64,000 nucleotides of DNA from Clostridia bacterium (GTDB lineage: Bacteria > Bacillota > Clostridia > UMGS1810). The translations under genes and the position numbers were made by a program. Shown here in pieces: positions 7,180-61,087 of the stretch. Under the pieces are notes generated by a model, which worked only from the letters and a program-made list of their open reading frames with translations, did not search any database and was not told where the DNA came from. The stretch spans positions 1 to 64,000 of the forward strand of contig JAFQHQ010000158.1 in the NCBI GenBank assembly GCA_017397885.1, given 5' to 3'. Numbering within the stretch: position 1 is the stretch's first letter; each line of letters begins with the position of its first letter.

Positions 7180-7213
7180 AAACGAGGCTGAAAATTATTC
7201 GGCCTCGTTTTTG
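7180..7213 (+). terminator. intrinsic terminator after rnhA
   Basis: Inverted repeat aaacgaggctgaa / ttcggcctcgttt (one wobble pair) with a short loop and a T run. It ends the plus-strand block. The gap 7156-7474 otherwise holds only the repeat element listed next. Confidence 0.85.
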
Positions 7214-7237
7214 GTTTGTTTGTTTTTTATTGTATAA

Positions 7238-7477
7238 TAAATTTGAGTTTGCCGAGCAGTTTGAAGATGAGATAAACACCGGAGCGTTGCCTCCTTTGTG
7301 TAAAGGGAGGGGGACCGCGTAAGCGGTGGAGGGATTGTAACAAACTGCCTCAATTACAGTATTTGTGCTTGATTGAGAGTTTATCATTTAACAATCCCTC
7401 AGTCACTTCGTGACAGCTCCCTTTACACAAGGGAGCCTTTCGTCCTTGTGTTAAACAGAGCGATAACCCCCAATTTA
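7238..7477. repeat. palindromic MITE-like element, copy 1
   Basis: A 240-base non-coding element nearly identical to copy 2 at 12738-12977 and in the same orientation. Its two halves are imperfect inverted repeats: ctcctttgtgtaaagggagg near the left and the matching ctccctttacacaaggga near the right, each with a nested small hairpin (ccgcgtaagcgg; gtcacttcgtgac). The outer ends (taaatttgagttt / ccaattta) are degenerate compared with copy 2. No reading frame of its own. The last three bases supply the stop codon of the minus-strand gene to its right. Widespread palindromes of this kind are known from gut Clostridia (memory, unchecked). Confidence 0.85.
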
Positions 7478-8401: not shown

Positions 8402-8415
8402 TATCTTTTCTCCTC

Positions 8416-12046: not shown

Positions 12047-12060
12047 TTTAATTCCTCCGA

Positions 12061-12690: not shown

Positions 12691-12737
12691 TATAAAAAAT
12701 TCCTTTCATTTAAATTTTAGTTATATTTTAACCGGGA

Positions 12738-12977
12738 TAAATTGGAGTTTGTCCCTCTATTTGAAGATGAAATAAACACCGGAGCGTTGCCTCCTTTGTG
12801 TAAAGGGAGGGGGACCGCGTAAGCGGTGGAGGGATTGTAACAAACTGCCTCAACTGCAGTATTTGTGCTTGATTGAGAGTTTATCATTTAACAATCCCTC
12901 AGTCACTTCGTGACAGCTCCCTTTACACAAGGGAGCCTTTCGCACTTGTGTTAAACAGCTCGACAAACTCCAATTTA
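12738..12977. repeat. palindromic MITE-like element, copy 2
   Basis: Second copy of the element at 7238-7477, about 95% identical through the core and in the same orientation. This copy keeps perfect 16-base terminal inverted repeats (taaattggagtttgtc at 12738-12753 and its complement at 12962-12977), so it is probably the less degraded one. No clear target duplication beyond a possible TA. It fills most of the gap 12691-13033; the rest is AT-rich with no gene. Confidence 0.88.
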
Positions 12978-13033
12978 AATAAATAATATATACATTTTTA
13001 ATATATCACACATTCACGGTAATTACAACATTT

Positions 13034-17910: not shown

Positions 17911-20900
17911 AAAGGATAATGTGTTTAATGGTAGTCATTTTATTAGTTTTTGCTTATGTTGATAATTCATCAATAGTATTTGCAAAAACTACAAAGACAG
18001 CTGAAGAAGCGTTAAGTTGGGTTCAGAGTAAGGAAGGAGAATGCGTTGGAGATGGTGAGTGTGTCGCTCTCATTTGGCAATATTATAAAGAATTGGGTTA
18101 TACATCACCGGGAGGGTATGGTAACCAATATGCTACAAATAAAATACCTGAAGGGTTTGGATGGCGTAAAAAAGGTGGTATACCGAATCCGGGTGATATA
18201 TTAATCTATCAAAATGGTCAATATGGTCATGTTGCAATTTATGAATCAAGTAATGTTACATGGCATCAAAGGTATCCTTCAGATTACTATAAGGTTAAAA
18301 GAGTTGAGGGTAATTACAATACAATCGTTTCTGATTATTGGGGCTGTATTCATGTAAACTTTTCAGATTCTTCAAGTATCCACACCCACTCATGGAAAAC
18401 CTCAGCCAACACTGCACATCCTCACCTTGAATACAAATATTGTACATCGTGTAATGACGAGCAATATACCGGAAACCGCTCAACGGTAAAATCATGTGCT
18501 GAGTGTTATCCTGTGGGAAATGTAAATCTGACCCGTTCATTCAACCGTACATCCGGAGAAACAGTGTTCTATCGTAATTCTGTAACCAATGCAACATCAT
18601 ATTCTCTAAAAATATACCGTTCGACATCGGATATATCCGGGACATACAGTCTCTATAGCACACAGAATATGAGTTCTTCAAGTTTGGCAATATCTTTGGG
18701 ACAGGGATATTATTATTATGCTACTTTGGATGCAATAAACTCCAATACAGGCAAAACAAGAAGTACAACCTGCGACAGTTTTCGTATATACAACAGCTAC
18801 ACAGTAAGTTACAATGCTAATGGCGGAACAAATGCTCCGGCTTCGCAGATTAAAATTCAGGATGAAAACCTCATGCTTTCATCGGTAGTTCCTACTCGCA
18901 GTCATTATATTTTTAAGGGGTGGGCTACAAGTAGGAATTCCTTGGATGTACAATATACTGCGGGCAGTGCCTATACCAAAAATGCAAAAGCAACTCTTTA
19001 TGCAGTTTGGGAACCCGAAACTTATGATATTACATTTGATTTAAATGGCGGTAAAGGAACTGTAAACAGCACAACCATAGTATATGGTGATTCGCTGAGA
19101 ATGCCAAATTCGATAATAAGGGAGGGCTATTATCTTCGCGGTTGGTCAACAGGCAAATCATCGGCTGAACCTGAGTTTAAGCTTGGTAAAGACTATGAAT
19201 TGACATCTAACATGACTTTGTATGCAATTTGGGGAGCAAGCAACTGGGGCGGAAGTGTAGCAACAGGCTTTTCCGGCGGTGACGGAAGTGAAGCTGACCC
19301 TTACCGAATTTCAAACGCTTCCGAACTTGCATATCTTGCAAGCATTGTTAACAGTCAGACATCTGCACCTGAATATAAGTATTACATTCTTACCGATAAC
19401 ATTAATCTGAATTATGAGGAATGGCTTCCGATTGGATTAAATGAACTTGAGCATCAATATTTTTGCGGGTCCTTTGACGGAAACGGATATACAATATCAG
19501 ATCTTAGTATAACCTCTGCAAATCATGGTTATATAGGGCTTTTTGGATATGCTAAAAACAGTGAAATAAAAAATCTTACTGTGGCAGGTGAAATATATGG
19601 TCTGTCAACAAGTGACGTACTTTGTGCAGGTAGCTTTGTTGGTTTTTCATATAATACCTCATTTGAAAAATGTCGTGCTTTTTATGTAAATATGTCTGAC
19701 CTCAGTGCAGGTAATTCGACTTTATCTTCTATTGGTTGTATTGTAGGTTATGCAGATGGCGGCAAAATAAATGAATGCTGTGCTGAAAATTCATACATAT
19801 TTCTAAAACAGGGTAGTTTCAACGCCGGTTTAATTGCAGGAAGTGTTAACTGTGGAATTGTAAATTGTTCGGTTGAGTCGGAAGCAGATGAACTTTTTGG
19901 AACAGCAGCAACTGCAGGGAATATTAATATGGGCGGTATCGTTGGTGAATCCTACAGTATAATAGAAATGTGCAGTGTTGATGCGGCATATTTTTCAAAC
20001 ACAGTTAAATCGTCAAATTACAATGTTGGTGGAATTGTTGGTCATGGTGCAGGAATAATAAAATTATGTTCTGTATCTTTTGATAATGGATTAACAAAAA
20101 ATATAGGTAATATATCATATTTAAGCAGTATTGGTGTTTCAGGTGAGAGTGGCACGGTTGGAGGAATAGTAGGTTGTTCTGATGCTAATTCTCAGATTTT
20201 TGATTGCAAGTATGACGGGCAGTCAATTTCTGCGACATCTTCCCTTGGAACTGTATCTGTTGGTGGTCTTGCCGGGAATGTTATTTCCGGCGATAAAATA
20301 ATTGTTCCAAGCGGTCAAACGCTTTCGAGGTTGTATTTGCCTAAAATGAGAGGATATACAGCAACGTGGTATACAGATTCAAAGTTTACTCATAAATATG
20401 ATTTTTCTCAACCAGTTACAGATAATATTTCATTATATGCCAAATGGGAATCCGGTCATGATGAATTACTATCGATATGGGATAATACATCTTCTCAACC
20501 TTATTATGATGAAAGTACAAAAACATATTTAATAACAAAACCATCGGAACTGGCGTGGATTTCAGATGTTACAAATGGTGTAATAACAAGCGGTTCCGTT
20601 TATCCTGAAAAAAGCTCCTTTGAAGGATATTGTATTAAGCTCAGTAATGATATCTATTTAAATGATACCGATGATTGGAAAAACTGGAATATAAAATCAC
20701 CCTCAAATCTTTGGAGAATTATCGGAGCGAATGAAGAAAATGCATTTGCCGGCACATTTGACGGACAAGGATATTCAATAATCGGAATGTACATCAATAA
20801 TGAAAACAGTTCTGCATTGGGACTGTTCGGTTATTCAAACGGAACAATAAAGAATTTGTCAATTCGTGAAAGCTATGGCTACGGTGATACAATTGGTATG

Positions 20901-23354
20901 TTTGTCGGATGCAATAATGGTTTAGTGGCTAACTGCTATAACTATGGTAATTTAATTGCAATAACCGGAGCGGGTGGTATTATTGCAATTAATTATGGAA
21001 GAGTGGAGTTGAGCTTCAACTATGGTGATATTATATCCGATGGTGGCGGCGAGATTGTATCATCCGGAGCTGGCGGTATAGCTTATATATCTGAGTATAT
21101 TGATGATGAAAATGATGGTACAATATATAACTGCGCCAATTATGGGAATATAAAAAGTAATTCTAAGTCTGCGGGTGGCATTGTAAATACTAACAGAGGC
21201 TCTCTTGTTTGCTATTGCGCAAATGAAGGAAGTGTAAATGCACAATATATAGCAGGAGGTATAACTGCATTTAATGATGGTGAAATATATGGTTCATTCA
21301 ATACAGGTAGGGTGAGTGGTGTTACTCATAATGACGAATACCATTACGAAGGAAGCGGTGGTATTGCCGGTGTCAATGCAAACTGTATTGTAAACAGTTA
21401 TAATACCGGTGAAATTATTGGATGTTACAGAGCAGGGGGAATATCCGGCTTAATCACAACAGATGGAGAATACAGTAAGGATTTTCGAATGTTACAATGT
21501 TACAACATCGGTAAAATTTCCGCTACTGCATCGAATGTAACTGAGAGATATTATGGTGGTGTATTCGGAGAAATTAATCACTATAACAAAGATGTGCCTT
21601 TGACAATAAGTTGTTGTTATACTAATGAATATCCAAGATATGGGGAAATATTTTCATACGAAGAATACTATACTATTGGTGCAATGGAAGTAATTGTAAA
21701 TATGAAGGATCCTACGCAGATGCCCGTGATTCATGATAATCCCAATTGGGATACAGATGAAAATATAAATGACGGATATCCTTATTTGTTGTTTGTCGAG
21801 AATGTATATGATTATAACAGGTACAATGTTAATGTGTATGACGGGGCTTTGAATAATAGTATTATTGGCAGAAGCTTTTCTAATGTGGAAGGCATAATCT
21901 ATGGAGAGAGTTCGGACTATAATGCTTTTGTAGGCGGTATCGCAGGATTTAGTAGCGAAAATGAAAACAGCATCGATTTCGGGAAGAATCTTATTGTAAT
22001 TGCTGACAGGATAAGCTCCAAGTCAAAATTGTACGCTTATAGCGGAGATACGATAGGGTTATACAGCGATAACCATGTTTTTGATAATGTTTTTGCGTAT
22101 TCAAGCATTGATTTGACAGCAAATAACCCGCTTATATCGGGAAATGTTAAAACGAATAATCTTGCATCTGCCAGAACTCTTTCGCAGCTAAAGCGTGAAT
22201 CGTTTCTAAAAACGGTTTACGGTCCGAATGTATATCAGTCTCTTAATTATCTTAATGAGGATGAAACTGCAGTATGGGTGGTGGAAGAAGGCAAACTTCC
22301 TGAACTATACTACAATTTATTAAATGACATTAGTATATCTTCGGATGTTGTAAACGGTAGTGTTACAGTGGATAAAACACAGGCTGTTGACGGAGAGCTT
22401 GTTACTGTTACGGCTGTTGCCAATGATGGTTATGTAACAGATAAAATCTATGTTAACGGAGAAGAAATTACCGGTAATACCTTTGAGATGTCAGGAGAAA
22501 GTGTTGTTTACGCAACATTTGCTCCAAAGAAAGCCGAATATGAAGTAAAAGTGACTCAAAGTGACAACGCCTCTGCTTCTTTACTTAATGCCGACAGTGA
22601 AATATCACTTATGTCCGTCGACGAATCAACACTCACTGCGTGTGATGGTGAAGAAATACATGTTAATGTTTCTGCAAACGAAAAATACACGGTTGACGCC
22701 ATATATGTTAATGATGAAATTATTGCAGGTGACAGTTTTATTGTGGATAACAACTCAACCGTATCCCTTTCAGTGTCAAGTATTGACACTGAGGTTTATG
22801 CAGTTACAAATGATGTTGATGTGGTTGGTTCCTTCTATGTAGAGGTCTCCGGTAGTTTGTCAAATGCCGGAGATGATGCAGTGAGATATATTGAATATTG
22901 GGAGAATGATAATTCGGATGAAAAATTTACCACAGAAATTTTGAACGGAGAGGGTGAGTACAGATGTGTACTTTATCCGTTGAAATCAAGCACTGCATAC
23001 AGCTATCGTATGTTGGATTCGGGTGAGATTAAAACATTTACCACATCTGAATATGTTGAGGAAGAACCGGCAGTTTCCCAACCGGTTACAACAACAACCT
23101 TCAAAACCCTTACATCAACATACAAGTTTTATGTTGAAAGCGCCGAGGCACTTTCGCAAGGTCACATAATTGTTGCGGGATATGCTGAAAACGGAAGAAT
23201 GATAAGTTTAGATTACACAGCTTGTGACGGCGATACGTCCTATACAGTAAGTCTGCCGCTTGATCCGGATTTGTATTTCGTCAAAATATATATTTGGGAC
23301 AGCATTAACGGATTAAAACCGTTTTATGTTCCGGAGACATTAATGATGAAATAG
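17907..23354 (+). CDS. giant secreted CHAP/InlB-repeat/GLUG surface protein
   Basis: An 1815-residue protein with a signal peptide (1-26). Domain order: CHAP amidase/endopeptidase domain (about 28-155; nucleophile Cys in GDGECVALIW near 52, His in YGHVAIYE near 107); a Cys-pair segment (TSCNDEQY, SCAECYP); a fibronectin-like domain; two InlB B-repeats (about 298-441; YNANGG, FDLNGG); a GLUG-type beta-helix (FDGNGYTI, GLFGYA; about 451-784); a third InlB-like repeat; a second GLUG block (850-1465); two divergent InlB/Big-type domains (1475-1622); and a C-terminal module ending VKIYIWDSINGLKPF. CHAP domains cleave peptidoglycan cross-links or stems; the rest looks adhesive. No LPXTG or SLH anchor is visible. 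The gene overlaps the upstream membrane-protein gene by four bases. Confidence 0.85.
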   Translation: MKRIMCLMVVILLVFAYVDNSSIVFAKTTKTAEEALSWVQSKEGECVGDGECVALIWQYYKELGYTSPGGYGNQYATNKIPEGFGWRKKGGIPNPGDILIYQNGQYGHVAIYESSNVTWHQRYPSDYYKVKRVEGNYNTIVSDYWGCIHVNFSDSSSIHTHSWKTSANTAHPHLEYKYCTSCNDEQYTGNRSTVKSCAECYPVGNVNLTRSFNRTSGETVFYRNSVTNATSYSLKIYRSTSDISGTYSLYSTQNMSSSSLAISLGQGYYYYATLDAINSNTGKTRSTTCDSFRIYNSYTVSYNANGGTNAPASQIKIQDENLMLSSVVPTRSHYIFKGWATSRNSLDVQYTAGSAYTKNAKATLYAVWEPETYDITFDLNGGKGTVNSTTIVYGDSLRMPNSIIREGYYLRGWSTGKSSAEPEFKLGKDYELTSNMTLYAIWGASNWGGSVATGFSGGDGSEADPYRISNASELAYLASIVNSQTSAPEYKYYILTDNINLNYEEWLPIGLNELEHQYFCGSFDGNGYTISDLSITSANHGYIGLFGYAKNSEIKNLTVAGEIYGLSTSDVLCAGSFVGFSYNTSFEKCRAFYVNMSDLSAGNSTLSSIGCIVGYADGGKINECCAENSYIFLKQGSFNAGLIAGSVNCGIVNCSVESEADELFGTAATAGNINMGGIVGESYSIIEMCSVDAAYFSNTVKSSNYNVGGIVGHGAGIIKLCSVSFDNGLTKNIGNISYLSSIGVSGESGTVGGIVGCSDANSQIFDCKYDGQSISATSSLGTVSVGGLAGNVISGDKIIVPSGQTLSRLYLPKMRGYTATWYTDSKFTHKYDFSQPVTDNISLYAKWESGHDELLSIWDNTSSQPYYDESTKTYLITKPSELAWISDVTNGVITSGSVYPEKSSFEGYCIKLSNDIYLNDTDDWKNWNIKSPSNLWRIIGANEENAFAGTFDGQGYSIIGMYINNENSSALGLFGYSNGTIKNLSIRESYGYGDTIGMFVGCNNGLVANCYNYGNLIAITGAGGIIAINYGRVELSFNYGDIISDGGGEIVSSGAGGIAYISEYIDDENDGTIYNCANYGNIKSNSKSAGGIVNTNRGSLVCYCANEGSVNAQYIAGGITAFNDGEIYGSFNTGRVSGVTHNDEYHYEGSGGIAGVNANCIVNSYNTGEIIGCYRAGGISGLITTDGEYSKDFRMLQCYNIGKISATASNVTERYYGGVFGEINHYNKDVPLTISCCYTNEYPRYGEIFSYEEYYTIGAMEVIVNMKDPTQMPVIHDNPNWDTDENINDGYPYLLFVENVYDYNRYNVNVYDGALNNSIIGRSFSNVEGIIYGESSDYNAFVGGIAGFSSENENSIDFGKNLIVIADRISSKSKLYAYSGDTIGLYSDNHVFDNVFAYSSIDLTANNPLISGNVKTNNLASARTLSQLKRESFLKTVYGPNVYQSLNYLNEDETAVWVVEEGKLPELYYNLLNDISISSDVVNGSVTVDKTQAVDGELVTVTAVANDGYVTDKIYVNGEEITGNTFEMSGESVVYATFAPKKAEYEVKVTQSDNASASLLNADSEISLMSVDESTLTACDGEEIHVNVSANEKYTVDAIYVNDEIIAGDSFIVDNNSTVSLSVSSIDTEVYAVTNDVDVVGSFYVEVSGSLSNAGDDAVRYIEYWENDNSDEKFTTEILNGEGEYRCVLYPLKSSTAYSYRMLDSGEIKTFTTSEYVEEEPAVSQPVTTTTFKTLTSTYKFYVESAEALSQGHIIVAGYAENGRMISLDYTACDGDTSYTVSLPLDPDLYFVKIYIWDSINGLKPFYVPETLMMK

Positions 23355-35608: not shown

Positions 35609-38600
35609 ATGAAAAAAATAATTTCCGTCTTTCTTGCCTTGACGTTGATTTTGGCATACATGCCGGCGGATATATTCACCATGAATGCCAAAGCAGAAAG
35701 CGAAACCTATGTCATAAAACCTACAGATGACACATGGGCGGGTTATTCCACCGAATTTCGTAATGTCATCCAGGGTGTTAAAATAGACGGTGAAGACTCC
35801 AACATATATAACCGTCTCTATTCTATCGGTGCAAGTGCCGACGGTGACCTTAGCACGAAAGTATATAACTCGTCACCGGTATATATGAAATATGACCTTT
35901 CAGATATTTCAAATGTGAAAATTAAATCTGCAAAGCTTAAACTTTACGGAAAATGTCTGAACAATGTTTCCGTGAACAATATTAAAATGTTTTTCTTTAA
36001 AATCGACAACAAATGGTCCGAAAACACTCTTATTCACGGAGACACACCTTTCTGGCCTTTAAAGGGCGGCGTTCCAAGTGCCGATTTCACACAGTCCTCT
36101 GATCCATCTAAGATTCAGCCCGACCTTGTGAGTCCTGTGTTTAGTATGAGTGCATCAAGCGAAGAATTTGAGCTTAAAGAATTTGATGTTACCACTCTTT
36201 TGTCAAAATACAATCTGATGGAAGATTCAACGGTGTCTTTTGCATATATGGTTTATCCCACATCCTACGTGTTCAATGTTGTTTCCAAAGATGCCGATGA
36301 AACCGATATGCATCCGGTTCTCGAAATTGAAACAGAGCCTATTCCCGATTTTGAAGCAGTATCCGGTCCTGAGGGTGAAATAGAATTTGACAGTCCCGTT
36401 TCGGTAAGCTTTACCAATAACGTTGATAAGAATTCTGTTGATGCTTCGAAAATACATTTGTATGAAGACGGCGAAGAAATAGAAATCAGCGATGACGATA
36501 TAGACGTTTGTGATAATGTTATCACTGTTTCGACTCCGCTTGCCGGCTATTGTGATTACAGCCTGGTTATTTCCGACGGTATTTTTGACATATACCAAAA
36601 TCAGCTTATTTCCGAGGCAGAGTATACCTTCTCAACAGTGGGTGTTCATACTGAAACAGTATACACCCACACCGAAGCCGATTCGTCAGTGCCTCAGGGG
36701 ATTCTTAACGGAGCATTCCTTAAAAGTGGTGCATCAAACCTCAATAATACTCGTGTTACCGACACCGGCAGAGTGCAGATAATGGCAGGGGGTAGTGCTT
36801 ACTACATATACTGCGTTGAAGCAGACCTTACAACACTTGATACCTCTGTTCCTTTTGCTTCCTTTATTTATTCTGTAAAATTCCATACCGGAGCAGGACA
36901 AAAAATAAGTGTTATTGAACTTGATGATTTTGATCCTGAAACTGTTACCTATGGTAGTGTAAGCGAAAATGTAGACTCCGGAGAAATCATCATTTCAAAT
37001 CAGGCTCTCGGAGACTGTACCGGAGGCAAATATGTTGATTTTGATTTGACGGAATTTGTTAACAAAAAGATTGCCGAGGGCGAAACAGTAATTCGCTTTG
37101 CAATGAAACCCACAGTAAAACACACAACCAATTTCTATTCAAACTTTGCAGGTTCTGCTCACCGCCCGAAAGCAAAGGTTATCTTCAATGACGATAGCTT
37201 TACCGGAGTTAAGGAATCTGTTCCTTGCCACGCGCAAAACGGCGTTGATGTGTCTGCTCCCTTAAGTGTGACCTTCTCGGTTCCCATGGAGAGTGTAACC
37301 TATGAAAACTTTGCACTTACAAATCTTAATGACTCAACTCAAATCACCTTTGGTGCAGATGATGTTGTGTATGATGATGTGACATTAATTGCAACCGTCA
37401 CACCACCTGAATCCCTTGATGAATTAACTCCCTATGAACTCGCCATTTTTGGTGCAAGCTCCTTAAAGGGAGAAGTGATGAAAAACAAAAAAATCAAGTT
37501 CATAACAGGCTCATCTCTTGAAATTGGCGAAATCGTCTTAGATGATGACGATTTGATTGATGAAGGAGAGCAAATCATGGCAAGTGTCGATGTTTCAAAT
37601 AACACCGATTCTTCACTAAAAAGCCCAACTCTCATCATCGCTCTCTACAAAGGTGCAGTTATGGTTGACTATGCTTTGGGCACATCTGATGAACTTACCG
37701 CCCAATCATCTGCAACCCTTGAAGCAGCTCTCGCCGTAAAACCCGATTCAGACCTCTATGATCAATACTATGTAAAAGCCTTTTTGTGGGATTCCTTGGA
37801 TGGTCAGCGCATTATGGCTGAATCTGTAACAGGTGAGAGTGCATCCGAAGACTATGAAAACGGCAAATTCTTTGGGGTTGTGACCGCAGACGGAGGATTT
37901 GCAAATTCATCCGAAAAACAAGTTACTATTGTTGCAAAAAATGAAGCCGGTGAAATTTGCTACATCAATCAGGTGACAGCAGACGAAAAAGGAAAATTCA
38001 GTGCCGAACTCGGTTTTGAACAAAGCGGAAATTACAGTGTGTATGCAATGTCTGAAGCCGCCTTTGCTAAAGCTCCTGCAATAGAAATTGATAGCTATAC
38101 ATCCTATGATGACTATCTCGATGTGTGGGAAGCCATAAATTCCGAAAACAAAACCAAAATTGCCTCTGTGCTCACCAAGGCTGTTGAAATATTTGATTTT
38201 GATGAAATCAATTACAGCATTGAGCACATTACAGACCTCATTTCGGCAGATATTAAAGAATATGGTGATTTTGGTTCATATTCCGAAGATAATATTTCCG
38301 AATTTTATGATTTTCTCAAAGAATCATCAATGCGTCATTTCAAAGTGTCAGAGCTTCTCTCGGATATTGCCGATGCAGAAAACTACACACTTCTTACCGA
38401 TATTCTCGGCAATGAAGAAAACGCAACCTATCTTCAGATAGACAAACACCTTTCGAAATATCGTGACAACAAAAAGAAAATCAACAAAGCTCTTGTTGGT
38501 AGAAAATTTGATTCTCTTGAAGACTTTGTGGAAGCATTTGAAGACGCTCTTGATGATGCTCTTGACAAAGATGATAAAGACTCCGGCGGAGGCGTAAGCG

Positions 38601-41600
38601 TCAGCAAAGGTAATTCGGGTTCTTCAACGGTGTATACCGGCACAACGGTAACCACACCGCCACAGTCCGAACCTATGCAAACTCCCTCTGATTCTGCCGC
38701 GTCGGATAATCTGATTTTACAGGAAGAAAACTATTTTACCGATTCATCAACAGTACCCTGGGCACAAAAGGAAATTGAATTCCTTTACCGCATGGGTGTT
38801 ATAAGCGGAAGAGGCGAAAGGACCTATGCTCCCAATGACAATGTTTTGCGTGAAGAATTTGTAAAGCTTATTGTTGAAACAGTGGAAGCAGACACAAAAA
38901 ATGCAAAATCCGATTTTGAGGATGTCAGCAAAGATTTCTGGTGCTATCCGTATGTTTCTGCCGCATATTCCAACAAAATTGTTAACGGAATATCTGACAA
39001 AAAGTTTGGTGTAGGCACCGACATAACCCGTCAGGATATTTGTGTTATGATTGCAAGAACTCTCGAGCTTATGGGATTTACTGCAAAGAGTGAAAAAGAA
39101 GCAAGCTTTGGTGATATGGCATTGGTGAGTGATTATGCCAAAAATGCCGTTGCATACCTTGGCGAAATCGGCATCATAACAGGCACACCCGACGGGAAAT
39201 TCAATCCCAAAGCCAATGCTACAAGAGCGGAAACCGCACTCATTATTTTCCGCACGATGGATTATATCAAAACCAATGGTGCTACTCTCTATAAACCCGA
39301 CAGCTCCAATGAACCTCAAACGGAAACTGACGGAGAATACAAATATACCACTCCAACCACCGAGCAGGTTAAGGCAGATATTGAAAATGTATTGATGAAA
39401 AAATCTCATCCCTACATTCATGCAACAAGGGAAACCCTTGATAATATCAAAAAATCCCTTGAGGCGGGGGATGATGAATACATTGCCAAAGAGTATGCAC
39501 AGACAAAGGAAATGGCAGATGAATATCTTACCACCAAAGTTGCAGTACGTACCAAAGTCGGTCAGGGCTTTAGCTATGTTCAGCCTCTGATTCTCTCGTG
39601 TATGACCGTCTATTATGTGGAGGGTGACGAAAGATATCTTAACCGTTGTCTTGCAGAGTTTGAAAACTTTAAAAATATTACCGAGTGGTATTCAGGCTCA
39701 CAGCTTAACACCACCATGACCATGGTGTCAATTGCAATATGCTACGACTGGCTCTATGATTATCTCACAGATGAACAAAAGCAGTGGGCGCTCAATGCAA
39801 TTGTTGAATATGGTCTTACAATGTCGTACAAGGTTTATGAAAACCCAAAGGCTCTTAATCAGATTAAAAAGGAATATAACGGCATAAATGTGTATTGCGG
39901 TTACTATTCATACAATCACGCAGTGTTCAATAACTCACATAACATCATTGCAGCTCTTGCCATTGCTCAGGAAATGCCGGATTTCAGTGCATTCATAATT
40001 GCAAATGCGCTCTATAGTCTTGAATGTTATCTTGATTTGGTTAAAGACGGCGGCTTTGAAGAACCCTCAACTTATTATGATTATTGTACAGGTAAATATG
40101 TATATGCGGTAAGTGCGCTCAAATCATCTCTCGACACACTCTACGGCTACGAAAAGAGTCCCGGCTTTAAAAACACCGCATGGTACGGACTTTACATTTT
40201 CGGACCAATGGTATTTGGTGATTGTGTTCCTGACAAAACTACCTACAACACAGATAAACTCTATATTCTTGCAAAAGAGTCCGGAAATGAAGCTATGATG
40301 AAGAGAATTGTGGACCTTGACCAGAAACAAGGTGTATGGACACTTTTGTGGTATGAAAAAGGAGCGCACGATAATCTCACCGATGATCTTGCAGTGCCTC
40401 TTGACCGAATGTTCAAGGTACCCGATCAGCAGGTTGCACTTTTCAGAAATCAGCTTAATGAAGGTAACAACATCTTTGCCGGCATATATACCGGTGGTGT
40501 TGCAACCTCTCATTCCGACCCCGTTGCAGGTCTGTTTTCAATCGATGCCTACGGTGAACGTTTTGCCACGGCTCTCGGCTATGGTGACTATGACCTTGAA
40601 GGTTATTGGGATAATGTTCAAAACGGCAAAAGATGGAATTATTATGAGCGCCGTACGGAAGCCGGCAACTGTCTGATTATAAATCCAAGCCTTGATGTTG
40701 GTCAGGATGTCACAAAATCTGCATATTTTGAGAAATATGAAATCAGTAACGGTGCGGCATTTGCAATCACCGATCTTGAACCGGTTTATCACAGAGAGGT
40801 AAAAAGCTATAAGAGAGGGCTTAAAATCCACAACAACCGCAGTCAGATTGTTGTTCAGGATGAAGCTGTGATGAAAAAACCTTCCGAAATATTCTGGTCC
40901 TTCAACACACCGGCGGAAATTGAAATCATAGATCAGTCCACTGCAGTTTTAAGCCACGGTGACAAACGTGTTGCAGTAAAGATATATGCAAATGTTCCCT
41001 ATGAACTTTATGAAATGCCTGCCGAAAAGCTTCCCACATCTCCCAAGGTAGACACCCAGAGAGAATGGAAGGAATTTCGCAAGCTTGCCATAAAAGCCAA
41101 AGGTGTTGAACAGCTTAAACTTATGGTTGAATTTACACCCTTTGTTTCCGATCTTCAGATGCCCGAAACAATATCCGAATGGGTTGATCTTGATTCATGG
41201 GTTGCAATTGAAAAAGGTGAGGATGTCCCCAAGCTTCAGAGTCTTAAAGTTAACGAAGTTTCGGTTGAAAACTTTGATCCCGAAACCTACTACTATGAAG
41301 TTGAACTCAAAGATTCCCACAATATGCCTTCAATAACTGCCGAAGTTCCTGAAGGTTACAACTTCGAGGTAATATATCCCGAAAAGCTTCCCGGAGCAAT
41401 AGACATTGCTGTTGGTGAAGAGGAAAGCGAAAATGTTAATTATTATCGCATAAGAGTTATAAGCGGTGCAGGTAAGGTTGATGTGTCAAATCTCACAAAG
41501 CTCGAAGCAAAGAGCGTATTCACTCCCCAACACGACGGCAACGTTGCCGAAAATGTTCTGGACGGACTTCTCACTACACGCTGGTCAGCAAGCAGTGAAA

Positions 41601-41887
41601 AAGGCGAAACATATCTTGACATCGATCTTGGCGCTGAACATTCACTTAAAGCCATAGGAATTGCATTTTATTCGGGTGCAAACAGAGTTTCGTATTTCGA
41701 CATTTTAACATCTACCGACGGAAAGAACTGGAAAAAAGCAATAGAATACGGACGTTCTTCCGGTGACAGTGAAGAAATTGAGAATTTTGAAATCAATGTT
41801 GAAAAGGCACGCTATGTTCGTTATCTTGGCAAAGATAACAGTGCAAACAAGTGGAATAGTATTTCCGAAATTGTTATATACGAGTAA
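35609..41887 (+). CDS. giant secreted polysaccharide lyase (heparinase II/III or alginate-lyase-like) with internal SLH repeats and CBM32
   Basis: A 2092-residue protein. In order: signal peptide; a DNRLRE/CBM96-like domain (30-244); a Big_5-type Ig domain (about 247-344); a second DNRLRE-like domain (350-525); a second Ig domain; a module with YVKAFLWDSLDGQ (about 637-737); a further beta domain and an acidic helical stretch (to 990); three SLH repeats (1044-1217); an alpha/alpha-barrel plus beta-sandwich lyase region (about 1264-1860; HPYIHATRETLDNIKKSL, AICYDWLYDYLTDEQ, NNSHNI, and a DxxR/HSDP segment); and a C-terminal F5/8 type C (CBM32-like) domain (about 1960-2092). It should cut uronic-acid glycans by beta-elimination at the cell surface. 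The exact PL family is not certain. The next gene starts 12 bases downstream. Confidence 0.82.
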   Translation: MKKIISVFLALTLILAYMPADIFTMNAKAESETYVIKPTDDTWAGYSTEFRNVIQGVKIDGEDSNIYNRLYSIGASADGDLSTKVYNSSPVYMKYDLSDISNVKIKSAKLKLYGKCLNNVSVNNIKMFFFKIDNKWSENTLIHGDTPFWPLKGGVPSADFTQSSDPSKIQPDLVSPVFSMSASSEEFELKEFDVTTLLSKYNLMEDSTVSFAYMVYPTSYVFNVVSKDADETDMHPVLEIETEPIPDFEAVSGPEGEIEFDSPVSVSFTNNVDKNSVDASKIHLYEDGEEIEISDDDIDVCDNVITVSTPLAGYCDYSLVISDGIFDIYQNQLISEAEYTFSTVGVHTETVYTHTEADSSVPQGILNGAFLKSGASNLNNTRVTDTGRVQIMAGGSAYYIYCVEADLTTLDTSVPFASFIYSVKFHTGAGQKISVIELDDFDPETVTYGSVSENVDSGEIIISNQALGDCTGGKYVDFDLTEFVNKKIAEGETVIRFAMKPTVKHTTNFYSNFAGSAHRPKAKVIFNDDSFTGVKESVPCHAQNGVDVSAPLSVTFSVPMESVTYENFALTNLNDSTQITFGADDVVYDDVTLIATVTPPESLDELTPYELAIFGASSLKGEVMKNKKIKFITGSSLEIGEIVLDDDDLIDEGEQIMASVDVSNNTDSSLKSPTLIIALYKGAVMVDYALGTSDELTAQSSATLEAALAVKPDSDLYDQYYVKAFLWDSLDGQRIMAESVTGESASEDYENGKFFGVVTADGGFANSSEKQVTIVAKNEAGEICYINQVTADEKGKFSAELGFEQSGNYSVYAMSEAAFAKAPAIEIDSYTSYDDYLDVWEAINSENKTKIASVLTKAVEIFDFDEINYSIEHITDLISADIKEYGDFGSYSEDNISEFYDFLKESSMRHFKVSELLSDIADAENYTLLTDILGNEENATYLQIDKHLSKYRDNKKKINKALVGRKFDSLEDFVEAFEDALDDALDKDDKDSGGGVSVSKGNSGSSTVYTGTTVTTPPQSEPMQTPSDSAASDNLILQEENYFTDSSTVPWAQKEIEFLYRMGVISGRGERTYAPNDNVLREEFVKLIVETVEADTKNAKSDFEDVSKDFWCYPYVSAAYSNKIVNGISDKKFGVGTDITRQDICVMIARTLELMGFTAKSEKEASFGDMALVSDYAKNAVAYLGEIGIITGTPDGKFNPKANATRAETALIIFRTMDYIKTNGATLYKPDSSNEPQTETDGEYKYTTPTTEQVKADIENVLMKKSHPYIHATRETLDNIKKSLEAGDDEYIAKEYAQTKEMADEYLTTKVAVRTKVGQGFSYVQPLILSCMTVYYVEGDERYLNRCLAEFENFKNITEWYSGSQLNTTMTMVSIAICYDWLYDYLTDEQKQWALNAIVEYGLTMSYKVYENPKALNQIKKEYNGINVYCGYYSYNHAVFNNSHNIIAALAIAQEMPDFSAFIIANALYSLECYLDLVKDGGFEEPSTYYDYCTGKYVYAVSALKSSLDTLYGYEKSPGFKNTAWYGLYIFGPMVFGDCVPDKTTYNTDKLYILAKESGNEAMMKRIVDLDQKQGVWTLLWYEKGAHDNLTDDLAVPLDRMFKVPDQQVALFRNQLNEGNNIFAGIYTGGVATSHSDPVAGLFSIDAYGERFATALGYGDYDLEGYWDNVQNGKRWNYYERRTEAGNCLIINPSLDVGQDVTKSAYFEKYEISNGAAFAITDLEPVYHREVKSYKRGLKIHNNRSQIVVQDEAVMKKPSEIFWSFNTPAEIEIIDQSTAVLSHGDKRVAVKIYANVPYELYEMPAEKLPTSPKVDTQREWKEFRKLAIKAKGVEQLKLMVEFTPFVSDLQMPETISEWVDLDSWVAIEKGEDVPKLQSLKVNEVSVENFDPETYYYEVELKDSHNMPSITAEVPEGYNFEVIYPEKLPGAIDIAVGEEESENVNYYRIRVISGAGKVDVSNLTKLEAKSVFTPQHDGNVAENVLDGLLTTRWSASSEKGETYLDIDLGAEHSLKAIGIAFYSGANRVSYFDILTSTDGKNWKKAIEYGRSSGDSEEIENFEINVEKARYVRYLGKDNSANKWNSISEIVIYE

Positions 41888-48177: not shown

Positions 48178-49785
48178 TCAGTGAAGAAGTGAAGCACCAA
48201 TTAAGCCTGCATTGTTTTTGTGCTCGGCAATAACAATCGGCACATCAAATTTTATCTTTTCTTTAAGGGGAGACAAAAGTGCATCGCCTGCTCCCGATAT
48301 ACCGCCCGAAATAATAACCTTTTCGGGGTCAAAAATGTATATAAGTCCGTTTATTCCTGCCGAAAGGTAATCGGTATATTCATCAAGTGTCGTATTTGCC
48401 ACGGGGCAGTTTTCTCTCACTGCTTCAAAAAACAGGAGACCGTTTAGCTTGTTTTGGTTTTCGGCATATTTTTGTGCTAAAAGTGAATCGGGATTTTTTA
48501 TTGCCGCATCTGTTGCCATTTCCATGAGAGCTGTGGTTGATGCGTATTTTTCAAAGCATCCTTCAAGTCCGCAACCGCATTTTTTTCCGCCATATACAAT
48601 GGGAAAATGACCGAGCTCTCCGCCGCTTCCTTTTCCTTCATAAATTTTTCCGTCAAAAATAATTCCGCCGCCCACGCCTGTTCCGAGAGTGAGAACAACC
48701 GAGTTTTTAACATCTCTGCCTGCACCTGCCGCAGCCTCTGCAAGAGCGGCACAGTTGGCATCGTTGGCGATGTAGGTTGTGACACCGGTTTTTTCTTTGA
48801 CCGCACCTGCGAGGTCATAGTTGTCAAAATTAAGGTTAACGGCAGACACTTTGGAATTTCTTATAAGCCCGGGAGTACCAATGCCGATTGAGCCAACATT
48901 GTAGTCATTCATAAGTTCAAGACATTTTTCGGCAATTTGTGTTGCAACTGCGTCTGCATCTGCACCTTGCGGGGTGGGAGCTGTAACTTTTTTGAGAATC
49001 TGGAAGTTGTCGTCCACAACGCCGATTTTCATTTCGGTTCCGCCAAGGTCAACGCCAATTCTAACACCTTCATATGCGGCTCTGTCACAAACCAGAGTAA
49101 CATCGGGATGAATGTGAAGAATTGTTGCCGGCACATCGGTACGTATGTTTCTTTTCAAAATTCTTCTCACAATACGGTGCTTTAAAGCTCCGCTTGCCAT
49201 AATAACAATTTTTTTGGAACGCATGATGGTTCCGAGCCCCATTGTAAGTGCGTGGGTGGGGGCATCTTCCGGATTTTCAAAATGGGCGTAGTGAACATCT
49301 AAGGCTTTTTGAGTGAGCTTTGTGAGGTGGGTGTCACCCTCAAGGGAAACATCAGGATTGTTAAAGCCTATGTGACCGTTTTGACCAAATCCCAAGAACT
49401 GCAGGTCAATACCTCCACATTCGGATATTTTCTTTTCATAATTATCACATTCAACCTTGGGGTTTTTACATTTTCCGTCAAGCATATGTATGTTTTCGGG
49501 GCGGATGTTCACCTTTGAAAAAAGATGTTTATTCATAAAGCTGTGATAGCTGTGTTCATCATCTGCCGCCATGGGATAATATTCGTCAAGATTAAAGGTT
49601 TTAACTTCAGACATATTGAGCTTGCCGTTTTCATACATTTTTGCAAGCTCTTTGTAAACACCTGCCGGAGTTGTTCCCGTTGCCATGCCAAGAACAGAGT
49701 CGGGTTTTTCGTTAATTTGGTCTGAAACCATTTTCGCTACTTCTTTGGCAATTTGTTCGTAGTTGTCACAAATAATTACTTTCAT
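48178..49785 (-). CDS. glucosamine-6-phosphate deaminase fused to a ROK-family sugar kinase
   Basis: One 535-residue chain. Residues 1-241 are NagB-like: Asp67 in FNLDEYYPM and His138 in GQNGHIGFNNP; the usual FNEP reads FNNP here, so the normal third active-site residue (Glu, position 143) is Asn. Residues 245-535 are a full ROK kinase: ATP loop IGVDLGGTEMKIG, catalytic Asp in IANDANCAA, LGTGVGGG, and the zinc motif CGCGLEGCFE. The domains join without a linker (DRAAYEGVRIG). A kinase making an amino-sugar or hexose 6-phosphate next to a deaminase suggests two successive steps in amino-sugar use. There is no in-frame start at the ROK boundary. Divergent from an AraC gene. Confidence 0.87.
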   Translation of the reverse strand: MKVIICDNYEQIAKEVAKMVSDQINEKPDSVLGMATGTTPAGVYKELAKMYENGKLNMSEVKTFNLDEYYPMAADDEHSYHSFMNKHLFSKVNIRPENIHMLDGKCKNPKVECDNYEKKISECGGIDLQFLGFGQNGHIGFNNPDVSLEGDTHLTKLTQKALDVHYAHFENPEDAPTHALTMGLGTIMRSKKIVIMASGALKHRIVRRILKRNIRTDVPATILHIHPDVTLVCDRAAYEGVRIGVDLGGTEMKIGVVDDNFQILKKVTAPTPQGADADAVATQIAEKCLELMNDYNVGSIGIGTPGLIRNSKVSAVNLNFDNYDLAGAVKEKTGVTTYIANDANCAALAEAAAGAGRDVKNSVVLTLGTGVGGGIIFDGKIYEGKGSGGELGHFPIVYGGKKCGCGLEGCFEKYASTTALMEMATDAAIKNPDSLLAQKYAENQNKLNGLLFFEAVRENCPVANTTLDEYTDYLSAGINGLIYIFDPEKVIISGGISGAGDALLSPLKEKIKFDVPIVIAEHKNNAGLIGASLLH

Positions 49786-50870: not shown

Positions 50871-51506
50871 CTATCGTTTTAAAAGTGAGGCAAGTTTTTT
50901 TCGTCCGCTTTGCCAAATTTCATAACTTTTGAATTTAAGCTCCACTTCGGAGCTTTTTTCTTTGTTTACAAATTCGCTTATATCTTTATTGCTGCTTTTT
51001 TCAATCATCTTAAAGGCCTCGGAGTCGGTTTTGACACAAGTTTCATCCACAAAGCAAAGGGGCGGAAAAAGCACACACCACCAGTTTTTTCCGTCTGCTT
51101 CTCCTATTTCAACTTTCAAAGCCTCATATGATCCTGCAGGAAGAACAAGATTCCCGTATTCTTTTGTGGGGAAATCGCTTTTGCCAAAGTTTACACTTAC
51201 ATCATATTCAAATCCGTTTCTTTTAATTTCATCTTCTGCTATTTTTTTAATATAGTCAAGATTTTCCGTCGTTATGGTTTTAACCTTGGCAATATCGTTT
51301 TCCGCCTCAAACATGTCTTTTGTTTCGCTGATAATTCTGTCTCTGACTTTTAGTTTCAAATTCTGATCGGCATCGGAGTCTGAATTTGCAATAACATGAA
51401 GTCTCAGCACCGAATTTGCCAAAGCTGTTTCGGTGGTTTTAAAATTAGAATGAAGCATCAAGGTACAAAAAAAGCCAATACACAGTGCCGTAATACATTT
51501 TTTCAT
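50871..51506 (-). CDS. spoIIR: stage II sporulation protein R
   Basis: A 211-residue secreted signalling protein made in the forespore that triggers processing of pro-sigma-E in the mother cell. Signal peptide or anchor at 4-22, then the family core LRLHVIANSDSDADQNLKLKVRD and the WWCVLFPPLCFVD block. Normal length for clostridial SpoIIR. The aaaaggagag site precedes the ATG. This gene marks the organism as having an endospore programme. I could not recognise a sigma-F promoter. Confidence 0.94.
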   Translation of the reverse strand: MKKCITALCIGFFCTLMLHSNFKTTETALANSVLRLHVIANSDSDADQNLKLKVRDRIISETKDMFEAENDIAKVKTITTENLDYIKKIAEDEIKRNGFEYDVSVNFGKSDFPTKEYGNLVLPAGSYEALKVEIGEADGKNWWCVLFPPLCFVDETCVKTDSEAFKMIEKSSNKDISEFVNKEKSSEVELKFKSYEIWQSGRKKLASLLKR

Positions 51507-57480: not shown

Positions 57481-57645
57481 GAAATAAAGCTAAAATAAAC
57501 AAAAATCAAACATCAAAAATGTGCACATGCACTAAAATGTCATTAAAATGCAACCTTTTTTTTGATTTAATGGTATTATATGTAAAAGGAACAATTACTT
57601 TTTAAATTTTCTGTATTTTGAAAGATGATTTTCGGGAGGATAACA

Positions 57646-60600
57646 ATGTCTACAAATGAATTTTCAAATTCGCAAAATCCCATGAATCCGGTCGATTATA
57701 AACCGGTCAAAAAAAGGCGTGTCAAGAAGGGCAGAAAAAAAGTATGGATTATTTCGAGTCTTGTGATTGTGCTTATTCTTGCCATCGCTGCAACGATATA
57801 TTATTTTGTTGCTTCATCCGCAGAGGAAGATAAAGCTCTTGATAATACTTTTACAGAACTCGCAAAAATAAATGAAAATGTATCATACGATGATGAAACA
57901 GGTCTTGCTTACATTAACAATGAAATAATTGTTATGGCAAGTGAAGAGGCCGGTACAGATGAAATAAAAAAGATTGCAGATAAATATGATGCAGAAATTT
58001 CGGATGCAATGGAGGATATCGGTTTTTACTGTTTTACATTTAATGAGCGAATGACAGTTGAGGATATTGACCGTATTGTTAAGAAACTCAGTAAAAACGA
58101 AATGATAGATTCAGCTTATCTAAATCCGGTAGTGGCTGTAGAAGATGACACTCTCGAGTCGGATGAGGAACCGCAAAAGAGTTCCGATGTAAAAGCTTCT
58201 TCGGACAGTGATTCGGAGGAAGCGGTTACAATTGCACAAGGGACAGCTTTTTACCCGGATGATGACTGGAACGGAGCAACATGGAATGTTAACATTCCGC
58301 GAGACGAAAACTGGGGAGTTGAAGCCATTAATGCTCCATTTGCATGGGCACATATGGACAAGCTTGAAGAGGTGAACATAGGTCTTATAGACACTATGCC
58401 CGATTTGAGTCATTCGGAGCTTGAAGACACTACAGCCTTCCTGACCATGACCGATCCCGAAACCAACAAATATTCCACTATTGAAGTAGATAATACACAA
58501 ATTAGTAAAAGCGATCATGGTACACATGTGGCAGGGATAATGGGGGCGAAATGGAACGGTGGAGGAATTTCGGGCGTAACCGGAAATAATGGAAATATAT
58601 ACTATAGCTGTGCGTATGATCTTGATTTGTCCGGTAGGCTTACGGGCGAGTATTATTCGGCATATAATTATGTCAAAGCTATAAAAGTGCTTATTAACAA
58701 TGATGTAAGTGTAATCAACATCAGTCTGAACACATCGCGAGAAGCGTGCTACGGAGCATCAAAAGGCAATGAGAATGCTATAAACTATATTGATCGTCAA
58801 GCGAAAATTGCATCCTCAATGCTTGGAAGAATAATAGATGACATTCAAAAAAACAATGCACAGGATTTTGTAATCTGTGTAGCTGCCGGAAACACAAACG
58901 GATATGATTATTATCCAACCGAAGCTGCAAGGTTTGGCTATATTAAAGCTGACAAAAACACTCCTCCGTGGGTAAAGACTGAAAGAGGTGGTGCGCTTGC
59001 AGAGTATAACAATTTTCTTTCGTTCATTTCCGACGAAAAAGTGAAAGGTCGAATAATAACAGTTGGTTCAATCGGTATAGATCACGCAGATTCTACCGGG
59101 GAAATGACCGATTATAAATATTCATATTTTTCATGTGTTGGTGACAGGATAGATGTTGTTGCCCCCGGAGAGGATATATATTCTTGTATTCCCGACTCAT
59201 ATGCATCAATGGATGGAACATCCATGGCAACGCCACATGTTTCAGGTGTGGCAGGTCTTGCATTTGCGGCAAACCCGTCTTTGTCGGGTCCTGATGTTAA
59301 AGCACTTGTTACGGAGTTAACTTCCGAGGAGTTTTACTATGCCGGCGGAAACAGCGGCCTTGTGGATGCCGACCTTGTCATAAGAGCTGCTTTGCAATCA
59401 AAAGAAGCCAATATCAATAAGATAGTTAAAGGAACCGGCAGTGGAATTGATCTTTGCTTTGTAGTGGATACAACCGGCTCTATGAGTGATGATATTGGCA
59501 ATGCAAAGGAAAACATGGTTTCAATTCTTAGTGAACTTGAGGCAAAAAGTGCAGACTATCGTGTAGCACTTGTTGATTACCGTGATTTTGAATCAAGGTC
59601 CGGCTCGGGAGACTATCCTGCAAAAATCCAGTTGGAATTCAGTAGTAACAATGATGAAATTATTGCTGCCATAAATTCTCTTGACTTGGGATATGGTGGA
59701 GATGATCCCAAAACCGTTTATTCGGGTATAAACGAGACCCTTAAACTTGACTGGAGAGCAAGAGCACAAAAAATTATTATTATTCTCGGTGATGCTCCGC
59801 CACATGATCCCGAACCGGATACCGATTATACATATGAAGATGTTTTGACTTCCCTGTACAATGCAGATATCGGAATTGATCTCGGGAATTCGGATGAAAG
59901 AGTTCTTGGTGCACCCGAAGACAGCAAAATGGCAGTATATTCAATCGGTATAGGTGGCGGGTTGGATTTCTTTGAAGAAATTGCCGAAGCAACAGGTGGA
60001 AAATATACCGAAATTGCCGATGCCGATCAAGTTTCGGATGCAATCATAGATTCCATTCGTGACATTAAAGTAGATTCTGTAACTTATGCATTGGATTTTG
60101 GAAAAAGCTTTAGCGACGAAACGGTTAAGTTTTATAAAGATGATGAATATGTGTTTGAACTACCGCTCGATAATAAAGGTCAATATCAGATAAATGATGT
60201 GACAGCCGGAGAATACAGATGGACGATAGACAGACTTCAACGAAGCGGAACCATTAGTTTTGATGAAGATGAGGATAATGCACAAATCAAAAAAGACAGC
60301 ACCAAGTGGTATAACTTTGCCATTGTGCTTTGGAAGCGTCACCGTACCGAGACAATCCTGTGGACTGCTTTGGTACTTGTACTGTTGGTTGTAATTATAA
60401 TTGCAATATCTAAACTCAAAAAATATCTGAAAAAAGCCAAGGCTCGACGTGTCCTTCGAATGGAGCATTGTCCTGCATGCAATAATCCTCTCTCTCACGG
60501 AAAATGTAAGGTTTGCGGTTATGGTTCAAATCCGCTTACAGCAGAAATTTCTCGGGTTGAGACGGTTTTTGGTAAGGAAGAAAGATGCAATGTATGCAAT

Positions 60601-60960
60601 GCATTACTTGAATCCGATAGTGCGTTTTGTATAAACTGCGGCGCCAAAATAGCGGGTGTTTGCGTGGATGAGGATAAGCCTGCTCCACAGCCGGAGATTG
60701 ATAATAACATTGAAAAAGCAGAGGATATGACTGCCGCTGCAGATCAAGCGGAACAAAGAGGTGTATTTTGTAACGAATGCGGAACACCGCTGAATCCGGA
60801 AAGTGACTTTTGCCCAAACTGTGGTGTGAAAAAATGCGAACCACCAAAAGAAATGAAGCCTGATTTGGATTTGCCTCGCGGCAGATTTTGCAATGAGTGC
60901 GGAACAATGATTAAAGAGGATAATATATTTTGTCCAAATTGCGGCAGAATTCTTAAGTAA
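57646..60960 (+). CDS. membrane subtilase fused to VWA domain and four cytoplasmic zinc ribbons
   Basis: An 1104-residue protein I have not seen described. Order: basic cytoplasmic N-terminus; membrane helix (33-55); a propeptide-like region (about 70-165); subtilisin-family S8 domain (about 241-585) with Asp in GLIDTMPDLS, His in SDHGTHVAGI, Asn in AAGNTNG and Ser in MDGTSMATPHVSG, so the triad is complete; a VWA domain (about 598-808) with MIDAS-type DTTGSMSDD; a beta domain; second membrane helix (905-928); and four Cys4 zinc ribbons (940-1104), for example CPACNNPL, CNVCNALL and two of the form CNECG..CPNCG. Protease and VWA face outside and the ribbons inside. ATG 57646 follows gggagg. 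Confidence 0.88.
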   Translation: MSTNEFSNSQNPMNPVDYKPVKKRRVKKGRKKVWIISSLVIVLILAIAATIYYFVASSAEEDKALDNTFTELAKINENVSYDDETGLAYINNEIIVMASEEAGTDEIKKIADKYDAEISDAMEDIGFYCFTFNERMTVEDIDRIVKKLSKNEMIDSAYLNPVVAVEDDTLESDEEPQKSSDVKASSDSDSEEAVTIAQGTAFYPDDDWNGATWNVNIPRDENWGVEAINAPFAWAHMDKLEEVNIGLIDTMPDLSHSELEDTTAFLTMTDPETNKYSTIEVDNTQISKSDHGTHVAGIMGAKWNGGGISGVTGNNGNIYYSCAYDLDLSGRLTGEYYSAYNYVKAIKVLINNDVSVINISLNTSREACYGASKGNENAINYIDRQAKIASSMLGRIIDDIQKNNAQDFVICVAAGNTNGYDYYPTEAARFGYIKADKNTPPWVKTERGGALAEYNNFLSFISDEKVKGRIITVGSIGIDHADSTGEMTDYKYSYFSCVGDRIDVVAPGEDIYSCIPDSYASMDGTSMATPHVSGVAGLAFAANPSLSGPDVKALVTELTSEEFYYAGGNSGLVDADLVIRAALQSKEANINKIVKGTGSGIDLCFVVDTTGSMSDDIGNAKENMVSILSELEAKSADYRVALVDYRDFESRSGSGDYPAKIQLEFSSNNDEIIAAINSLDLGYGGDDPKTVYSGINETLKLDWRARAQKIIIILGDAPPHDPEPDTDYTYEDVLTSLYNADIGIDLGNSDERVLGAPEDSKMAVYSIGIGGGLDFFEEIAEATGGKYTEIADADQVSDAIIDSIRDIKVDSVTYALDFGKSFSDETVKFYKDDEYVFELPLDNKGQYQINDVTAGEYRWTIDRLQRSGTISFDEDEDNAQIKKDSTKWYNFAIVLWKRHRTETILWTALVLVLLVVIIIAISKLKKYLKKAKARRVLRMEHCPACNNPLSHGKCKVCGYGSNPLTAEISRVETVFGKEERCNVCNALLESDSAFCINCGAKIAGVCVDEDKPAPQPEIDNNIEKAEDMTAAADQAEQRGVFCNECGTPLNPESDFCPNCGVKKCEPPKEMKPDLDLPRGRFCNECGTMIKEDNIFCPNCGRILK

Positions 60961-61055: not shown

Positions 61056-61087
61056 AAAAAATAACCACCCTTTTTAGGGTGGTTATT
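61055..61087 (-). terminator. terminator of the tRNA gene
   Basis: On the minus strand, stem aataaccaccc / gggtggttatt with a six-base loop, then six T. It begins seven bases after the tRNA. Confidence 0.85.

What the first reader, a model, noticed from the sequence alone, without database searches (positions are those of the whole stretch)
57646..60960. Transmembrane subtilase-VWA protein with four cytoplasmic zinc ribbons
A complete S8 triad and a MIDAS-bearing VWA domain are placed outside and joined through a membrane helix to four Cys4 ribbons inside. Such a layout could let a ligand or cleavage event outside be passed to a zinc-ribbon scaffold inside. I know of no named family with this order.
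Basis: partly seen in the sequence, partly recalled or inferred. Interest (0 to 1): 0.65.

Follow-up and report, generated by a model that had tools for sequence, protein, structure and literature searches.

The report
Membrane-tethered subtilase with VWA, zinc-ribbon tail
An uncultured Clostridia-like bacterium makes a protease that sits on the outside of its cell membrane, with a sticky metal-binding domain beside it and four small zinc-binding knobs on the inside; the parts are all known, the combination is rare and has arisen more than once, and nobody has tested what the inner knobs do.

Summary
The ORF 57646-60960 (+) encodes 1104 aa: N-terminal TM, fervidolysin-type prodomain, intact S8 domain (D249/H291/N416/S526), VWA_4 domain with MIDAS residues, small beta domain, second TM, four Cys4 ribbons. 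Charge bias puts both ends inside, S8 and VWA outside. No Pfam/NCBIfam equivalog or paper found covers the whole order. It is not unique: a 980-aa protein in another genome of the class reads ribbon-TM-prodomain-S8-VWA-TM-ribbon, and two further genomes carry tandem ribbon-TM-prodomain-S8 genes. All lie in one S8 clade (100/99), but ribbon-bearing members fall in three places and their single origin is rejected (p-AU 0.003); the two VWA domains are of different Pfam types. So similar layouts were assembled repeatedly. Ribbon-TM-ectodomain is a stock design here: the same genome has ten other single-TM ribbon proteins, and S. aureus TcaA has that layout. Most likely it is a surface-anchored, self-maturing subtilase whose VWA docks substrate or partner and whose ribbons are a cytosolic anchor/adaptor. 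Transmembrane signalling is possible but unsupported. Verdict: real, new architectural variant of known parts; moderate interest.

The parts
57634..57639 (+). Shine-Dalgarno GGGAGG, 6 nt before the ATG at 57646
   Evidence: sequence
57646..60960 (+). whole coding sequence, 1104 aa plus stop; single-gene unit between divergent sbcD and convergent trmO
57742..57801 (+). TM1 (aa 33-52), preceded by KPVKKRRVKKGRKK
   Evidence: hydropathy 2.8 and charge bias
57883..58119 (+). fervidolysin-type prodomain (aa 80-158)
   Evidence: PF22148 E=4.1e-5; model pLDDT about 90 and top fold match unprocessed pro-subtilisin E 3whi
58138..58254 (+). acidic, Ser-rich low-confidence linker between prodomain and catalytic domain (aa 165-203), absent from relatives; likely self-cleavage region (inferred)
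58369..59313 (+). Peptidase S8 domain (aa 242-556), triad D249/H291/S526, oxyanion N416
   Evidence: PF00082 E=1.8e-29
59449..59958 (+). VWA domain (aa 602-771), VWA_4 type, MIDAS-type D608 T610 S612 D686 D716
   Evidence: fold matches to integrin beta I-like, ITIH1 and CMG2 VWA domains
60067..60255 (+). small juxtamembrane beta domain (about aa 808-870)
   Evidence: homologous to stand-alone TM-beta-TM-ribbon proteins, E=2e-22, profile search
60346..60411 (+). TM2 (aa 901-922)
   Evidence: hydropathy 3.14
60412..60453 (+). basic stop-transfer stretch KLKKYLKKAKARRV
60469..60516 (+). Cys4 ribbon 1 (C942-C957)
60586..60639 (+). Cys4 ribbon 2 (C981-C998)
60769..60822 (+). Cys4 ribbon 3 (C1042-C1059)
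60889..60942 (+). Cys4 ribbon 4 (C1082-C1099)
61060..61087 (+). intrinsic-terminator-like hairpin, 12 pairs then T-rich tail
   Evidence: pattern match only; the region as a whole holds no more terminator-like sites than shuffles

Best explanation
It is a membrane-anchored extracellular subtilase. It is inserted N-in by TM1 (inferred from charge). The prodomain folds the S8 domain and is then cleaved in cis in the long acidic linker (inferred), which frees the enzyme from TM1, but the mature S8-VWA part stays held to the cell by the beta domain and TM2. The MIDAS-bearing VWA next to the protease docks a metal-dependent ligand: a substrate protein, a wall component or another cell (inferred). 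The four cytosolic ribbons form a zinc-stabilised tail that fixes topology and serves as anchor or adaptor/oligomerisation platform, as the recurring ribbon-TM module seems to do in many surface proteins of this genome (inferred). It processes or digests proteins at the cell surface. Shown: domain order, intact catalytic and MIDAS residues, charge-consistent topology, relatives with ribbons on the same side. Not shown: activity, self-cleavage, metal binding, ligand, role of the ribbons.
For: Intact triad and oxyanion Asn; prodomain and fold match to unprocessed pro-subtilisin; MIDAS residues kept; two TMs with positive-inside bias. Members of the same S8 clade are surface-located by alternative means: SLH repeats (L012, L107), single TM (L015), predicted secretion (L016), so surface location, not the ribbon, is the common feature. 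Ten other single-TM proteins with N-terminal ribbons in the same genome, with assorted ectodomains. The beta-TM-ribbon tail exists as stand-alone 240-252 aa proteins in two other genomes. Single-gene context.
Against: Four ribbons and a long tail are more than anchoring needs. SLH-tethered relatives show ribbons are not needed for surface holding, so their repeated acquisition suggests some specific cytosolic role. No experimental data of any kind.
Confidence: 0.55

Rival explanations
1. Transmembrane receptor: ligand binding by the VWA or cleavage by the S8 domain alters TM2 and the ribbon scaffold inside, which recruits DNA, RNA or a signalling enzyme.
For: Precedent for a protease-like ectodomain joined through one TM to a cytosolic regulator: RsgI9 of C. 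thermocellum, whose periplasmic part autocleaves (PMC12203970). The two arrangements with VWA plus C-terminal ribbons appear to have arisen separately. The same genome has a VWA_4 + PP2C + kinase set beside ribbon proteins, like the TerY-P triad (PMC11090510).
Against: No regulator, sigma factor or kinase is linked to the gene. Ribbon-TM modules in this genome carry unrelated ectodomains. Several relatives keep the protease but not the ribbons.
Confidence: 0.17
2. Sheddase: the protein cuts neighbouring ribbon-TM surface proteins, the shared cytosolic ribbons bringing protease and substrates together.
For: At least ten ribbon-TM ectodomain proteins in the same genome; ribbons as association points would explain repeated recruitment to subtilases in three lineages.
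Against: Purely inferred; no interaction data; no co-occurrence test made.
Confidence: 0.13
3. Adhesion or colonisation protein in which VWA binding is the main role and the protease only self-processes to expose it.
For: VWA_4 relatives in the class sit in SLH and other surface proteins; fold matches to integrin and CMG2 VWA domains.
Against: Full prodomain plus intact triad, and in the S8 clade members without VWA outnumber those with it.
Confidence: 0.1
4. Assembly chimera or pseudogene.
For: The genome is a fragmented assembly: 221 contigs, 77% complete, 4.4% contamination estimate.
Against: One uninterrupted ORF in a long contig with SD and terminator; gene GC 0.41 against window 0.39; independent relatives of the same order and of the tail module.
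Confidence: 0.03

Closest known systems
G202 980-aa ORF (L013:5901-8840, -), uncharacterised
   Same: Order TM-prodomain-S8-VWA-TM-ribbon, 32% identical over prodomain+S8
   Different: Extra N-terminal ribbon, one C-terminal ribbon, classical VWA (PF00092 E=1.5e-21), no four-ribbon tail; joining it with the window protein as a clade is rejected, p-AU 0.017
G364/G790 tandem ribbon-TM-prodomain-S8-CarboxypepD_reg proteins (L105, L132), uncharacterised
   Same: Cytosolic ribbon, TM, prodomain, S8 of the same clade
   Different: Ribbon N-terminal only, no VWA, no second TM; 2 and 3 copies in a row
Stand-alone TM-beta-TM-ribbon proteins (L183, L199), uncharacterised
   Same: The window protein's tail, aa about 800-1000, E=2e-22
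   Different: No S8, no VWA; 240-252 aa
TcaA of Staphylococcus aureus
   Same: Predicted intracellular zinc finger, single TM, extracellular bulk (PMC10328498)
   Different: One TM only, no protease, no VWA
RsgI9 anti-sigma factor of Clostridium thermocellum
   Same: Protease-like ectodomain, one TM, cytosolic regulatory part; autocleaving periplasmic domain (PMC12203970)
   Different: S1C-like, not S8; cytosolic anti-sigma domain, not ribbons; no VWA
Mycosin (TIGR03921)
   Same: Membrane-anchored subtilase
   Different: 60.3 bits against a cut-off of 278.75; no VWA or ribbons
TerY-P triad (VWA, PP2C, kinase fused to zinc ribbon)
   Same: VWA and zinc ribbon used together; the VWA_4 model also hits a triad-like VWA in this genome
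   Different: Cytosolic, three genes, kinase and phosphatase; no subtilase or TM in the VWA protein

Membership tests
Peptidase S8 (subtilase) | S8 fold with Asp-His-Ser triad and oxyanion Asn | tested here: met
   PF00082 E=1.8e-29; D249/H291/N416/S526 in conserved columns; fold match 3whi E=1.5e-18
Peptidase S8 (subtilase) | proteolytic activity and prodomain removal | not testable with these tools
   needs expression and assay
VWA domain with MIDAS | VWA fold and metal-site residues | tested here: met
   PF25106 E=6.2e-12; DxTxS, D686, D716; Foldseek VWA matches on a model of modest confidence, pLDDT 58.5
Double zinc ribbon / Zn_Ribbon_1 | two CxxC knuckles per ribbon, above curated score | tested here: met
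   DZR 49.8 bits (cut-off 27.3), Zn_Ribbon_1 46.2 (25)
T7SS mycosin TIGR03921 | score over equivalog cut-off | tested here: not met
   60.3 against 278.75 bits
TcaA-type ribbon-TM-ectodomain layout | cytosolic zinc ribbon, one TM, extracellular domain | tested here: inconclusive
   ribbons inside and ectodomain outside by charge bias, but ribbons C-terminal and two TMs; no TcaA-family match listed by Pfam
RsgI anti-sigma factors | N-terminal anti-sigma domain and linked sigI | tested here: not met
   N-terminus is a 30-residue basic tail; no sigma gene beside it
TerY-P triad | linked PP2C and kinase genes | tested here: not met
   neighbours are sbcCD and trmO; the triad-like set is on another contig, C137

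The most novel reading that the evidence does not exclude
One clade of Clostridia-type surface subtilases has independently acquired cytosolic zinc-ribbon tails at least three times because the ribbons form a shared intracellular hub, so that this protein is a protease-receptor coupling outside proteolysis or VWA ligand binding to a ribbon-based cytosolic network, possibly the VWA/PP2C/kinase set of the same cell.
Probability: 0.1. Interest if true: 0.7.

Novelty: new variant of a known kind. Interest (0 to 1): 0.37.

Why it matters
Cytosolic ribbon-TM-ectodomain proteins are numerous in this genome and occur in related ones, and I know of none with a tested ribbon function. A lineage where the same kind of module was attached repeatedly to one enzyme type, at either end but always on the same membrane face, is a good place to find out what the ribbon does, since the ectodomain activity (subtilase) is easy to assay.

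Tried and rejected
Mobile-element origin: no near full-length match in plasmids or phages, only partial S8 or VWA matches under 60% identity. Orthologues in its own order: none in the 16 genomes held, so co-occurrence could not be used. First genome-contig scan with the single protein: nothing. Viral scan with the C-terminal half: nothing. PDB sequence search with the VWA: nothing at E<=0.01. Defence-system reading: only a generic subtilase profile in PADLOC and no linked defence genes. Misassembly and pseudogene: rejected, see rivals. Sporulation role: spoIIR lies at 50871-51506 but about six kb away on the other strand with unrelated genes between; not pursued. An earlier count said eleven single-TM ribbon ORFs; the correct count is ten.

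Full report
Observation. The ORF in the window is real and intact. Pfam finds Peptidase_S8 (E=1.8e-29), VWA_4 (6.2e-12), VWA (5.2e-9), double zinc ribbon (4e-13), Zn_Ribbon_1 (3.3e-12) and a fervidolysin-like prodomain (4.1e-5). The triad D249/H291/S526 and N416 sit in conserved columns of a 48-sequence S8 alignment. The MIDAS-type residues are kept. The four Cys4 sets are exact.

Topology. There are only two strong hydrophobic segments, 33-52 (mean hydropathy 2.8) and 901-922 (3.14). The N-terminal tail has 8 K/R against 2 D/E, the stretch after TM2 9 K/R against 1 D/E. This predicts N-in, ectodomain out, C-in. Relatives agree: ribbons occur N-terminally before TM1 (G364, G790), at both ends (G202), or C-terminally (window), always on the predicted inner side.

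Structure. AlphaFold2 on the full protein with 48 rows gave a confident prodomain and S8 core (pLDDT about 90 in many blocks) and low confidence for the rest. Foldseek's best match is unprocessed pro-subtilisin E 3whi, E=1.5e-18, then SUB1 and fervidolysin. A second model of the VWA-to-ribbon half, with only four rows and mean pLDDT 58.5, still finds VWA domains (integrin beta, ITIH1, CMG2, TFIIH chains) at E of 1e-9 to 1e-7; this is supporting only, and the large rmsd of the longest TFIIH matches means that any ribbon overlap there should not be read as homology.

Relatives. In the window's order (16 genomes) nobody else has it. In 391 genomes of the class the prodomain-S8 profile found seven genomes at E<=1e-30, the window's own among them. 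Architectures seen: SLH-Flg_new-S8 (L012), TM-S8 (L015), SLH-S8 (L107), ribbon-TM-prodomain-S8-CarboxypepD_reg in tandem (L105; three copies in a row in G790, L132), and ribbon-TM-prodomain-S8-VWA-TM-ribbon in G202 (L013). A predicted secreted member is in an Oscillospiraceae MAG, SIG575 (L016). By contrast none of the 80 best S8 loci from the 84,980-species collection (L016-L095) showed a ribbon or VWA motif in the S8 ORF by the same pattern test; that test is a simple regular expression.

Origins. A maximum-likelihood tree puts these S8 domains in one clade (100/99). The window protein groups with SLH-bearing G342 (92/93), G202 with secreted L016 (99/99), and the G364/G790 genes form a third group. 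A tree with window and G202 as one clade is rejected (p-AU 0.017), and so is one with all ribbon-bearing members together (p-AU 0.003); at least three changes of state are needed. The groups were named after seeing the first tree and end branches are long, so the p-values are indicative, and the count cannot tell gain from loss. That the two VWA domains belong to different types (VWA_4 here; PF00092/VWA_2 in G202) independently points to separate assembly.

The tail is a module. Residues about 800-1000 of the window protein match a 252-aa TM-beta-TM-ribbon protein in G230 (BLASTP E=2e-22) and a 240-aa one in G125, with no S8 or VWA in them. In the window's own genome Zn_Ribbon_1 has 21 matches; ten other ORFs read N-terminal ribbon(s), linker, one TM, assorted ectodomain, and five more have several TMs. 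So the ribbon-TM unit is a stock membrane module. A studied protein of that layout is TcaA, predicted to present a zinc finger inside and its bulk outside (PMC10328498); the function of that finger is not known to me.

Mechanism. The safest reading is a surface protease. The prodomain is followed by a ~40-residue acidic, Ser-rich linker absent from relatives, a natural place for self-cleavage; after it, TM1 would be lost but TM2 would still hold S8-VWA. In G364/G790, which have no second TM, the same cut would release the enzyme. The VWA beside the protease would dock a substrate or ligand through a metal ion. The ribbons would anchor the tail and bind a cytosolic partner. All of these steps are inferred. 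Signalling to the inside is possible: RsgI9 of C. thermocellum joins a protease-like, autocleaving ectodomain to a cytosolic anti-sigma domain (PMC12203970). But nothing in the neighbourhood (sbcCD upstream, trmO downstream, terminator at 61060) or in the relatives supports it.

Novelty. No curated family covers the order, and full-text searches found no description (the library lacks most subscription journals). All domains are known and the layout principle is known. I rate it a new variant of a known kind. Its interest lies in the repeated recruitment of the inner ribbons to one subtilase clade.

Noticed in passing
L155 (G000:C137:18000-28707), 4586-10558 +: In the window's own genome a run of genes: ribbon-TM ectodomain, ribbon-multiTM, soluble two-ribbon protein, VWA_4 (231 aa), PP2C-like, Ser/Thr kinase; resembles a TerY-P triad but with ribbons on separate proteins instead of fused to the kinase.
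   Followed up: partly
L132 (G790:C184), 2869-13024 -, and L105 (G364:C86), 4639-11234 -: Tandem arrays of three and two ribbon-TM-prodomain-S8 genes, each with a ribbon, a Pro/Gln-rich linker and one TM.
   Followed up: partly
L183:1078-1833 + and L199:7395-8114 +: Stand-alone TM-beta-TM-ribbon proteins of 240-252 aa homologous to the window protein's tail; in G125 (L199) the first ribbon has lost its cysteines.
   Followed up: partly
window 17907-23354 +: 1815-aa protein with CHAP domain and Flg_new (Listeria-Bacteroides) repeats.
   Followed up: no
window 35609-41887 +: 2092-aa SLH protein with F5/8 type C, CBM96/DNRLRE and weak heparinase II/III-like matches.
   Followed up: no
window 48178-49785 -: 535-aa fusion of a glucosamine-6-phosphate isomerase domain and a ROK kinase domain in one ORF.
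   Followed up: no
window 50871-51506 -: spoIIR homologue (Spore_II_R E=4.5e-52), so the lineage probably sporulates or did.
   Followed up: no
L012 (G342) S8 domain: The catalytic Asp position reads Glu (GLIEVG) in the SLH-tethered closest relative, so that one may be impaired.
   Followed up: no
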